The notes under the pieces are model-generated. The model searched no databases. It had not been told where the DNA came from and was given only the letters and a program-made list of their open reading frames with translations. Below are positions 18,622 through 21,171 of a stretch of 64,000 bases of DNA, piece after piece (the first letter of the stretch is position 1; each line of letters begins with the position of its first letter). The position numbers and the translations under genes were made by a program. Source of the stretch: Candidatus Poribacteria bacterium (lineage in GTDB: Bacteria; Poribacteria; WGA-4E; PCPOR2b); the NCBI GenBank assembly GCA_022822785.1, contig JAJEAL010000026.1, positions 62,001-126,000 of the forward strand, in the 5' to 3' direction.

Positions 18622-19254
18622 ATGAAGAACTTACTAAATAAACTGAAACCTAAACAACCCGATACTGCAGGGACATCTGCATCACTCACTGTCACTGAGG
18701 CCGCCAAGCAGAAAATCCAATCGGTGATTGAGGACCAAGGACTGGAAGTTCAGGGACTACGCGTTAGTATCAATGGCCGCTCCGCCTCAGCATTTGAGTA
18801 TGGATTGGGCCTCGAAGTTGAACCTGATCCAGATGATATCGTCGTGGACTGCGGTGAGTTTCAGGTTTTTATCGATCCGGAAAGTGCTAAAAACCTACAA
18901 GGGGCAACCATCGATTATGTGGAGGACCTCAATTCAAGCGGTTTTAAGATTGATAATCCCAACGCACCTACTTGGGATAACCCCAAAGCACAAGCTATTC
19001 AGCAACTCATCGATGAACGGATTAATCCTGCGGTCGCAGCGCACGGCGGACATATCGATCTGCTAGATGTTACAGAGGATTCTATCTACATTCACATGGG
19101 GGGAGGGTGTCAAGGGTGCGGCATGGCGAATGTCACCTTGAAACACGGAATCGAAGGAATGATCCAAGAACATTTTCCGGAAATTAAGAATATTATCGAT
19201 TCCACCGACCACGCCGCCGGCGAAAATCCCTACTACGAGGCGAGCAAAGGATAG
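18622..19254 (+). CDS. nfuA: Fe-S cluster carrier NfuA (degenerate A-type domain plus NifU C-terminal domain)
   Basis: 210 residues from ATG 18622, with GAGGAG seven bases upstream; the frame opens further but without a site. Residues about 20-110 form an A-type carrier-like domain (TVTEAAKQKIQSVI) that lacks the cluster cysteines of IscA (RSASAFEYGL stands where one is expected). Residues about 122-195 are the NifU C-terminal domain with the cluster-binding pair Cys163-x-x-Cys166 in GGGCQGCGMAN. NfuA delivers 4Fe-4S clusters to client proteins, one of which could be the radical SAM enzyme downstream. Gene order with the sigma factor and SufR-like regulator supports an Fe-S stress response. 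Confidence 0.9.
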   Translation: MKNLLNKLKPKQPDTAGTSASLTVTEAAKQKIQSVIEDQGLEVQGLRVSINGRSASAFEYGLGLEVEPDPDDIVVDCGEFQVFIDPESAKNLQGATIDYVEDLNSSGFKIDNPNAPTWDNPKAQAIQQLIDERINPAVAAHGGHIDLLDVTEDSIYIHMGGGCQGCGMANVTLKHGIEGMIQEHFPEIKNIIDSTDHAAGENPYYEASKG

Positions 19255-19421: not shown

Positions 19422-19505
19422 ATGTCCAAGTATCGTTTTATCAAAATCTTCCGTTCTGTATCCCCGTCTTTTAAGGCGGGGATACAGAACGGCAAACCCC
19501 GTTAG
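19422..19505 (+). CDS. Possible 27-residue leader ORF
   Basis: ATG at 19422 is preceded by AAGGAGGG, one of the strongest ribosome-binding sites in the window. The frame reads MSKYRFIKIFRSVS... and stops at TAG 19503-19505. The second half of the frame is formed by the long hairpin at 19451-19492, so translation could affect its folding. No homologue recognised; it may be chance or part of a decayed mobile element. Confidence 0.25.
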   Translation: MSKYRFIKIFRSVSPSFKAGIQNGKPR

Positions 19506-19659: not shown

Positions 19660-21171
19660 ATGATGAAACGTCCAGGGGCAATATTGCTCATCTCCTGTTA
19701 CGAACTTGGACATCAGCCTATCGGCCTTGCTTCTCCGTTGGGTTTCCTTGAGCGCGCCGGATATACACCGGCCGTGATGGACATCGCTGTTGAAACTCTA
19801 GACGCAGGAAAAGCCGCCCGCGCAGAATTCGTCGGAATCTGCGTGCCAATGCACACCGCACTCCGTTTAGGGGTCCATGTCGCGACGCACATTCGCAAAA
19901 TCAATCCGAGCTGCCATATCTGTTTTTACGGTCTTTACGCCTCACTCAACGCAGAATATCTGCTCACACATCATGCCGATTCAATCATCGGAGGGGAATA
20001 TGAGACGCCGCTAGTCAAACTGGTTGACTCGCTTGCAGCTGGAACAGATGTTGAAATAGCGGGTGCTCTCCTGCACAAGGATATTGAATCACTTCAAAAA
20101 CAGCTTCAATCCGAATCTGTCTTGAAACCCTTACACACAAGGACAAATGTGTATAAGCCGCGTAACGACCTATCCAGCGAATCGTTGGCCGTACCGAGCC
20201 GGAAACAATTGCCACCACTCGATCAGTATGCACACCTCGAAAAAGATGGGGCCGCTTACCTCGCCGGTTATGTAGAGGCAAGCCGTGGGTGCAAACACCT
20301 CTGCCTCCACTGTCCTATCCCTCCGGTCTATGAGGGCAAATTCTCTGTCGTACCAAAGGAAGTCGTGCTCGAAGACATTCGGGCACAAGTTGACGCCGGC
20401 GCAGCTCACATCACGTTCGGCGATCCCGATTTCCTGAATGGACCCAAACACGTGCTTCGTGTGGTTCAAGCCATGCACGAAGCGTTTCCAAGGCTTACCT
20501 TCGACTGCACGACTAAAATTGAGCATCTCCTGAAGCACCACCGCCTCCTGCCGGAGCTCCGCGATTGCGGTTGTATCTTTATCGTTTCTGCCGTTGAATC
20601 GCTCAATGACACAGTGCTTAAAAATCTGCAGAAAGGGCATACCTGTGACGATGTTTTCGCTGTCATCAGCCTTTTGAAGGGAATTGGGATTGCGCTGCGC
20701 CCATCGCTTGTTCCATTCACACCCTGGGAGACGCTTGAAAGCTACTTATATATCCTTGATGCTGTCGAACATAAAGAATTAATAGATCACATCGATCCCG
20801 TGCAGTATACAATTCGACTGCTCGTTCCGCCGGGATCCTCCCTACTTGCTCAACCCGCCACTCAGCCCCACCTTGGAGACCTAGATCAAGAATCGTTTAC
20901 CTATCGTTGGACACACCCTGATGCACGAATGGATGAACTCCAGAAAGCGGTCAGCGTCGCTGTGGAAAGCGCAGCGCAAATTGGCGAGGATGCCTGTGTC
21001 ACCTTCCATCGGGTGCGTAACCTTGCATATTCCGCAATCGGTAGAGAGGGGTCCTCCACAGCATTTCCACTATATTTTGAACAGAACCGAAGGCGACCGC
21101 CGCGCTTGACCGAAGATTGGTTCTGCTGAGCGGAGCCAACGCAGGATCAGTTGGATCCGCTCAACCCGTAA
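19660..21171 (+). CDS. CUAEP-tail radical SAM selenoprotein (UGA at 21127-21129 read as selenocysteine)
   Basis: Conventional reading stops at TGA 21127 after 489 residues ending EDWFC. Continuing in frame gives Cys-Sec-Ala-Glu-Pro followed by TQDQLDPLNP and a TAA at 21169-21171. This is the tail that names the CUAEP/CCAEP-tail radical SAM (seleno)protein family. Just after the TGA lies a bacterial SECIS-like hairpin. The N-terminal third is a B12-binding-like Rossmann region (YELGHQPIGLASPLGFLERAGY, then FYGLYASLNAEYLL). The radical SAM cluster motif is Cys211-x3-Cys215-x2-Cys218 in SRGCKHLCLHCP. Start: ATGATG at 19660 after a TTG; ribosome-binding site weak. Substrate unknown. An upstream nfuA could supply its cluster. 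Machinery for Sec insertion (selA, selB, selC, selD) is not in the window. Confidence 0.88.
21127..21162 (+). promoter_or_regulatory. Bacterial SECIS-like hairpin at the UGA codon
   Basis: GAGCGGA (21128-21134) pairs with TCCGCTC (21156-21162), a G-A mismatch follows, and CCAAC (21136-21140) pairs with GTTGG (21150-21154). The nine-base apical loop GCAGGATCA (21141-21149) contains the GG expected for SelB recognition. The loop begins 11 bases after the UGA, close to the spacing in the E. coli fdhF element. Confidence 0.82.

What the first reader, a model, noticed from the sequence alone, without database searches (positions are those of the whole stretch)
19660..21171. Predicted selenoprotein: in-frame UGA in a Cys-Sec-Ala-Glu-Pro tail of a radical SAM enzyme
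The apparent stop at 21127 follows Cys, and the next codons give Ala-Glu-Pro and ten more residues to a TAA at 21169. That is the tail that names the CUAEP/CCAEP radical SAM family, where some members have Sec and others Cys. A standard gene caller would cut the protein and lose its redox-active end. The substrate of the family is unknown, and the N-terminal B12-like domain adds interest.
Basis: partly seen in the sequence, partly recalled or inferred. Interest (0 to 1): 0.93.

Follow-up and report, generated by a model that had tools for sequence, protein, structure and literature searches.

The report
Selenocysteine-tailed radical SAM enzyme, Poribacteria
A sponge-type bacterium (Poribacteria) carries a radical enzyme whose apparent stop codon really encodes the rare amino acid selenocysteine, and the enzyme travels through evolution with a peptide-bond-forming ligase, which points to an undescribed pathway related to the one that makes the arsenic antibiotic arsinothricin.

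Summary
The finding holds. Window 19660-21171 (+) encodes a 503-residue radical SAM protein with in-frame UGA at 21127-21129 and tail WFC-Sec-AEPTQDQLDPLNP. It belongs to NCBIfam NF040546 "CUAEP/CCAEP-tail radical SAM (seleno)protein" (688.7 bits, cutoff 500). The UGA is no accident: every tail-bearing Poribacteria copy and many Chloroflexota copies have UGA there, while Nitrospirota and other Chloroflexota have Cys. A stem-loop just after the UGA exists only in the UGA genes, beyond what the protein sequence forces. selA, selB, tRNA-Sec (UCA) and selD are in the genome. So the family was already named, but I found no paper on it, and the 2026 selenoproteome review omits it. New here is the context. 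The nearest relative is ArsL (arsinothricin synthesis), which also ends in Cys-Cys. The gene co-occurs almost perfectly with an ATP-grasp amino-acid ligase: the same 17 of 246 Nitrospirota genomes; 49 both, 30 neither, 6 discordant in 85 Poribacteria, although unlinked there. DUF169, NfuA, YggX and formyltransferase genes recur nearby. Best mechanism (inferred): ArsL-like aminocarboxypropyl transfer from SAM to a thiophilic atom held by the Cys-Sec tail, then ligation of the product. Sec incorporation is near certain; the chemistry is a hypothesis.

The parts
19660..21171 (+). CUAEP-tail radical SAM selenoprotein gene, 503 aa plus TAA; UGA at codon 490
   Evidence: Translation with TGA=U; NCBIfam NF040546 688.7 bits, cutoff 500
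19660..20034 (+). N-terminal B12-binding-like (Rossmann-type) domain, roughly residues 1-125; conserved SCYELGHQP motif
   Evidence: Pfam B12-binding 25.7 bits, below its cutoff of 32.1; AlphaFold2 model nearest to AprD4 and TsrM
20275..20697 (+). Radical SAM domain, residues 206-346
   Evidence: Pfam PF04055 47.9 bits
20290..20313 (+). CxxxCxxC [4Fe-4S] motif, C211-C215-C218 (CKHLCLHC)
   Evidence: Invariant in the family alignments
21124..21138 (+). C-terminal Cys489-Sec490-Ala-Glu-Pro motif
   Evidence: Cys489, position 490 as U or C, and A/S-E-P conserved in about 100 distinct homologues
21127..21129 (+). UGA codon read as selenocysteine
   Evidence: UGA or Cys codon at this position in homologues; 20 of 20 UGA-carrying Chloroflexota genomes tested have tRNA-Sec
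21144..21158 (+). Apical stem-loop of the SECIS-like element: GGATC (21144-21148), loop AGTTG (21149-21153), GATCC (21154-21158)
   Evidence: 87% paired in 54 UGA sequences against 44% in 39 Cys sequences and 70% (maximum 76%) in synonymous-codon controls; compensatory changes at the pair 21147/21155
18622..19254 (+). NfuA-like (HesB plus NifU domains) Fe-S carrier gene upstream on the same strand; neighbour retained in other phyla, possibly dedicated to the radical SAM enzyme
   Evidence: Pfam NifU 83.3 and Fe-S_biosyn 56.8 bits; TIGR03341 128.7 bits, below its cutoff of 269; the same family lies near the gene in 20 of 74 loci, several phyla

Best explanation
The gene encodes a real selenoprotein of the CUAEP family: a stem-loop directly after the UGA recruits SelB and Sec-tRNA, and Sec490 is inserted next to Cys489 in a flexible C-terminal tail. 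The enzyme is an ArsL-type radical SAM enzyme. It binds SAM at its C211/C215/C218 [4Fe-4S] cluster; the C-terminal Cys-Sec (Cys-Cys in other lineages) most likely holds a thiophilic atom or group; [quoted passage not shown] An ATP-grasp L-amino-acid ligase encoded elsewhere in the genome (C116:29695-30939) then joins that amino acid to another amino acid or amine. DUF169, NfuA-like, YggX and formyltransferase proteins are accessory (Fe-S upkeep or tailoring). Shown by sequence: Sec recoding, family, relation to ArsL, co-occurrence with the ligase. Inferred: ACP chemistry, the role of the tail, the ligation product.
For: Sec: NF040546 match; UGA in all tail-bearing Poribacteria copies; Cys homologues; stem-loop only in UGA genes, with the Gln codon over the loop CAG in 53 of 54 UGA genes (the other is CCG) against 20 CAG and 16 CAA in 39 Cys genes; selA-selB-tRNA-Sec(UCA) in tandem on C141 and selD on C25; 20 of 20 UGA Chloroflexota genomes have tRNA-Sec, 15 of 15 Cys Nitrospirota lack it. 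ArsL relation: second-best model is ArsL NF040542, 319.9 bits; 30-36% identity to RCCLKC-tail/ArsL proteins over residues 8-430; 46 of 88 near-invariant positions identical in four ArsL-type proteins, and both families end in adjacent Cys-Cys/Cys-Sec. ArsL transfers ACP to As(III) (PMC8552651; preprint cited in PMC11048331). Ligase: beside the gene in 31 of 74 loci counting either strand; the same 17 of 246 Nitrospirota genomes as the radical SAM gene, unlinked in several; 49 both / 1 / 5 / 30 in Poribacteria, p = 1e-16, and p = 1e-7 within two genera; ATP-grasp genes of the same class also sit in ArsL-type clusters.
Against: No protein-level evidence of Sec. ArsL identity is only about a third, the protein scores below the ArsL cutoff, and the tail is CUAEP, not RCCLKC; tail homology is positional, because about 50 residues intervene in CUAEP proteins. 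No arsenic genes surround CUAEP genes, apart from a few distant ACR/ArsM-like hits, so the substrate atom is unknown. The two ligase groups are only about 25% identical. The tail has low confidence in the model (block means 66, 64 and 49 for residues 481-503) and coordinates could not be inspected. In the window's own sequence the lowest-energy fold of the SECIS region is an alternative to the consensus stem.
Confidence: 0.5

Rival explanations
1. The UGA is a true stop and the protein ends at Cys489; the downstream frame is chance, or the gene is decaying.
For: TGA is a normal stop in this genome, and an annotated relative (T. roseum TRD_RS12835) is written as ending there.
Against: AEPT..Q continues in every tail-bearing homologue in several phyla, with Cys in place of UGA in Sec-less lineages; UGA-specific stem-loop; complete Sec machinery.
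Confidence: 0.02
2. The Cys-Sec pair is a redox element: a selenylsulfide that reduces the active site or supplies or removes an electron or hydrogen during turnover, rather than a substrate clamp.
For: Adjacent Cys-Sec/Cys-Cys pairs at flexible C-termini are classic redox shuttles (general knowledge, e.g. thioredoxin reductase); free Sec-Cys exchange with at least 7 switches on the tree; Fe-S and iron-handling neighbours NfuA and YggX.
Against: The nearest characterised relative ArsL has adjacent cysteines in the same terminal position and acts on As(III), a dithiol-binding atom; no dedicated reductase recurs beside the gene.
Confidence: 0.25
3. It makes an organoarsenical, that is, an arsinothricin-like amino acid or peptide, as ArsL does.
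For: ArsL is the closest named family, and ATP-grasp ligases occur with both.
Against: No conserved arsM, arsN, arsR or arsQ around CUAEP genes; the third Cys of RCCLKC is missing; the family is widespread and mostly clustered by lineage rather than sporadic on plasmids.
Confidence: 0.12
4. It is a cobalamin-dependent radical SAM enzyme using 5'-deoxyadenosyl radical or methylcobalamin chemistry on an organic substrate.
For: N-terminal B12-binding-like domain; nearest folds AprD4, TsrM and OxsB; a gene that reads as a PduO-type cobalamin adenosyltransferase lies 1.5 kb downstream in this genus.
Against: B12-binding Pfam match below cutoff; the same weak match is seen in an ArsL-type protein (29.3 bits); the nearest fold, AprD4, is to my knowledge not B12-dependent; the cobalamin gene is a neighbour only in close relatives.
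Confidence: 0.12

Closest known systems
NCBIfam NF040546, CUAEP/CCAEP-tail radical SAM (seleno)protein
   Same: Whole-length match over the cutoff; CxxxCxxC; CUAEP tail; Sec and Cys variants
   Different: Nothing defining differs. The family has a name but no function; SECIS test, Sec/Cys phylogeny and partner genes are added here
ArsL / RCCLKC-tail radical SAM protein (NF040542), arsinothricin biosynthesis
   Same: Homologous over residues 8-430, same B12-like plus radical SAM layout, adjacent Cys at the C-terminus, ATP-grasp gene in several clusters
   Different: Below the ArsL cutoff (319.9 against 450); CUAEP instead of RCCLKC, no third Cys; extra segment of about 50 residues before the tail; no arsenic gene cluster
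AprD4, radical SAM 1,2-diol dehydratase (PDB 6fd2)
   Same: Best solved fold for the model, TM 0.65/0.71, and best sequence hit in the PDB
   Different: 16-17% identity, different substrate (paromamine); Cys-Sec tail not expected there (not compared)
Dph1-Dph2 (diphthamide synthesis)
   Same: Radical transfer of the ACP group of SAM (PMC11048331), the chemistry proposed here
   Different: Fe-S ligands from a non-CxxxCxxC motif and a protein substrate; no homology tested or claimed

Membership tests
CUAEP/CCAEP-tail radical SAM (NF040546) | Score above curated cutoff (500 bits) | tested here: met
   688.7 bits, profile 1-467 of 468
CUAEP/CCAEP-tail radical SAM (NF040546) | C-terminal C-U/C-A-E-P tail | tested here: met
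   WFCUAEP at 21118-21138
CUAEP/CCAEP-tail radical SAM (NF040546) | Radical SAM CxxxCxxC motif | tested here: met
   C211, C215, C218 invariant
Bacterial selenoprotein | In-frame UGA aligned with Cys in homologues | tested here: met
Bacterial selenoprotein | SECIS stem-loop just 3' of the UGA, with GU in the apical loop | tested here: met
   Stem nt 18-22/28-32, loop AGUUN; specific to UGA genes. No Rfam model reached its cutoff in the window
Bacterial selenoprotein | selA, selB, selC, selD in the genome | tested here: met
   selA 589.6 bits, selB 367, selD 367.5, tRNA-Sec 74.6, anticodon UCA
Bacterial selenoprotein | Sec present in the mature protein | not testable with these tools
   Needs mass spectrometry or 75Se labelling
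ArsL (NF040542) | Score above curated cutoff (450 bits) | tested here: not met
   319.9 bits
ArsL (NF040542) | RCCLKC tail | tested here: not met
   Tail is CUAEP; only the adjacent Cys-Cys/Sec pair is shared
ArsL (NF040542) | ACP transfer from SAM to As(III) | not testable with these tools
   Biochemistry needed; in the literature for ArsL only
Cobalamin-dependent radical SAM enzyme | B12-binding domain above the Pfam cutoff | tested here: not met
   25.7 bits against 32.1

The most novel reading that the evidence does not exclude
CUAEP radical SAM plus ATP-grasp L-amino-acid ligase (often with DUF169, YggX or NfuA and a formyltransferase) is a previously undescribed pathway in Poribacteria, Nitrospirota and Chloroflexota. 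In it a selenocysteine-tailed enzyme transfers the aminocarboxypropyl group of SAM onto a thiophilic atom, and the resulting amino acid is built into a small peptide.
Probability: 0.35. Interest if true: 0.85.

Novelty: new member of a known kind. Interest (0 to 1): 0.57.

Why it matters
Gene callers cut this protein at the UGA, as in the annotated T. roseum plasmid gene, and so lose the Cys-Sec pair that is among the family's most conserved features and probably functional. The family is in NCBIfam but absent from the 2026 review of prokaryotic selenoproteins. Linking it to ArsL chemistry and to one partner ligase with near-perfect co-occurrence in two phyla turns 'substrate unknown' into a two-enzyme system that can be expressed and assayed. 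It also offers Sec and Cys versions of one enzyme for asking why Sec is used.

Tried and rejected
Rfam scan of the window: nothing at gathering score, so no standard SECIS model applies. Literature: no paper found with CUAEP, CCAEP (in this sense), RCCLKC or NF040546, none joining arsinothricin and ATP-grasp, none on DUF169 function among titles and abstracts. An arsenic cluster around CUAEP was looked for and not found. The ligase's own neighbourhood in Poribacteria showed no other module gene. A Znu-type ABC transporter lies beside a few Nitrospirae genes; a metallophore role was considered and left as too thin. The lowest-energy fold of the window's SECIS region pairs nt 1-8 with 30-37 and 10-14 with 24-28; across UGA genes those helices are less well kept (59% and 77%) than 18-22/28-32 (87%).

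Full report
What is in the sequence. The window is G000:C33:62001-126000, part of a 5.6 Mb Candidatus Poribacteria assembly (nearest relatives by name). At 19660-21171 on the + strand a reading frame of 489 codons is followed by TGA (21127-21129), then 13 sense codons and TAA. Read with TGA as Sec, the protein ends WFC-U-AEPTQDQLDPLNP. NCBIfam NF040546, 'CUAEP/CCAEP-tail radical SAM (seleno)protein', matches the whole length at 688.7 bits, cutoff 500. Pfam finds the radical SAM domain and a sub-threshold B12-binding domain.

Is the UGA selenocysteine? Five independent lines say yes. (1) Machinery: selA (589.6 bits), selB (367 bits) and tRNA-Sec with anticodon UCA lie in tandem on contig C141. 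selD is on C25 and is itself UGA-containing (...KTCGUAAKVSP...). (2) Homologues: all Poribacteria copies that reach the tail have UGA. Chloroflexota are mixed, and Nitrospirota have Cys. The sequence after the codon is conserved: typically PRLTE-x-WFC-[U/C]-AEPT-x-x-Q. (3) Genome correlation: of 49 genomes tested, 20 of 20 with UGA have tRNA-Sec, 15 of 15 Nitrospirota with Cys lack it, and 14 of 14 Chloroflexota with Cys have it. One exception in another set is L023, a UGA gene in a metagenome bin without tRNA-Sec over the cutoff, possibly misbinned or incomplete. (4) Stem-loop: counting U of UGA as 1, nt 18-22 pair with 28-32 around a loop AGUUN. Over 54 distinct UGA sequences 87% of these pairs are standard, against 44% in 39 Cys sequences. 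Redrawing synonymous codons from the UGA set gives 70% (sd 2, maximum 76 in 1000 draws), and sliding one arm gives 25-63%. Pair 21/29 occurs as G-C, T-A and C-G. G24 is 54/54 in UGA genes but 21/39 in Cys genes, although it is the third base of a Gln codon (CAG 53 of 54, against 20 CAG and 16 CAA). Many of the 24 UGA sequences that break the fixed register form a 4-nt or 3-nt loop version. (5) The code is otherwise normal: 19 of 43 long frames in the window end in TGA. On a tree without the tail, Sec and Cys exchange at least 7 times on well-supported branches (8 by parsimony).

What the enzyme resembles. The second-best model, and the only other strong one, is ArsL (NF040542, 319.9 bits, below its cutoff of 450). 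A plasmid search returned Thermomicrobium roseum CUAEP and RCCLKC-tail/ArsL proteins at 30-36% identity over residues 8-430. In an alignment of 139 CUAEP entries (some regions entered twice) and 4 ArsL-type proteins, 46 of 88 near-invariant CUAEP positions are identical in all four. ArsL-type proteins end KRCCLKC; CUAEP proteins have an additional segment and end ..WFC[U/C]AEPT... So adjacent Cys-Cys or Cys-Sec at the C-terminus is common to both, but the match is positional, not a proven homology. [quoted passage not shown] a preprint with that mechanism is cited in PMC11048331). That the RCCLKC tail itself binds As(III) is my recollection and was not verified. An AlphaFold2 model (mean pLDDT 81.5, pTM 0.84, 14 sequences) is closest among solved structures to AprD4 (TM 0.65/0.71) and TsrM; the tail is poorly predicted and coordinates could not be measured.

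Partners. Across 74 loci (mostly about 8 kb flanks, Poribacteria, Nitrospirota, Chloroflexota and others) the recurrent neighbours are an ATP-grasp protein (31 loci), Formyl_trans_N (27), YggX/Iron_traffic (26), DUF169 (21) and an NfuA-like HesB-NifU protein (20), in changing order and orientation. These counts take both strands and include some near-identical species. The ATP-grasp protein has ATPgrasp_N, ATP-grasp_4 and LAL_C2 domains, the architecture of L-amino-acid ligases. ATP-grasp proteins of the same class sit beside RCCLKC-tail genes in Alicyclobacillus, Priestia and Pantoea plasmids, but are only about 25% identical to these.

In Poribacteria the ligase is not linked to the radical SAM gene, yet a single ortholog, 50-53% identical to a Nitrospirota one, is present in each of five genomes tested. 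Over 85 genomes: both 49, radical SAM only 1, ligase only 5, neither 30 (Fisher p = 1e-16, not corrected for kinship). Within the two large genera alone: 38/1/5/12, p = 1e-7. At least one 'ligase only' genome (G028) has the usual downstream DUF169 gene starting 58 bases from a contig end, so its radical SAM gene is probably lost to assembly. In those two genera DUF169 tracks the radical SAM gene with that one exception (39 both, 16 neither). In Nitrospirota the ligase occurs in exactly the 17 of 246 genomes that have the radical SAM gene, in several of them on other contigs. This is the strongest functional clue.

How it most likely works. Shown: Sec recoding (by sequence), family membership, descent shared with ArsL, evolutionary coupling to the ligase. 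Inferred: reductive SAM cleavage to an ACP radical; capture by a thiophilic atom held on Cys489/Sec490; ligation of the product. My probabilities: Sec insertion 0.97; working pair with the ligase 0.85; ACP transfer 0.45; tail as substrate holder rather than redox element 0.55. Arsenic as the atom is unlikely to be general, because no ars genes recur.

Known or new. The family and its Sec/Cys variation are already in NCBIfam, so this gene is a new member of a known kind. I found no paper that describes the family, and the 2026 review of the prokaryotic selenoproteome does not list it. The ligase co-occurrence, the ArsL relationship and the quantified UGA-specific stem-loop are, as far as I can tell from this library, not reported.

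Noticed in passing
window 19451-19492: A near-perfect 19-bp inverted repeat (RNA fold -35.9 kcal/mol, z -10) lies between the NfuA-like gene and the radical SAM gene; its arm occurs nowhere else in the window. Terminator or a mobile repeat remnant.
   Followed up: partly
L063 (G000:C25:56139-57062): selD of this genome is itself a UGA-containing gene (KTCGUAAKVSP), so a second predicted selenoprotein.
   Followed up: partly
L163 6953-8422 (Thermomicrobium roseum plasmid NC_011961.1): The annotated CUAEP gene TRD_RS12835 stops at the UGA; the frame continues AEPLEDPSGPV..., so the cultured species' record is truncated.
   Followed up: yes
G093 (Dehalococcoidia bin of L030): Two CUAEP-family genes in one small genome bin (C2 and C52), both without UGA in the matched part.
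   Followed up: no
L023 (DLRK01000100.1, labelled Akkermansiaceae): UGA-type gene in a bin without tRNA-Sec over the cutoff, placed beside Poribacteria in the tree; perhaps a misbinned contig.
   Followed up: partly
L077/L153 and L081/L157 (Nitrospirota): Tail variant CCSEP instead of CCAEP.
   Followed up: no
L175 (G000:C116), gene downstream of the ATP-grasp ligase: A 391-aa protein that I read as FIST-like (from memory, not scanned) follows the ligase on the same strand in this species; not conserved in relatives.
   Followed up: no
L164, L165, L167 (Alicyclobacillus, Priestia, Pantoea plasmids): RCCLKC-tail clusters carry an ATP-grasp ligase, GTP-binding protein, aquaporin or MFS transporter and sometimes no arsM; possible peptide or other versions of arsinothricin pathways.
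   Followed up: partly
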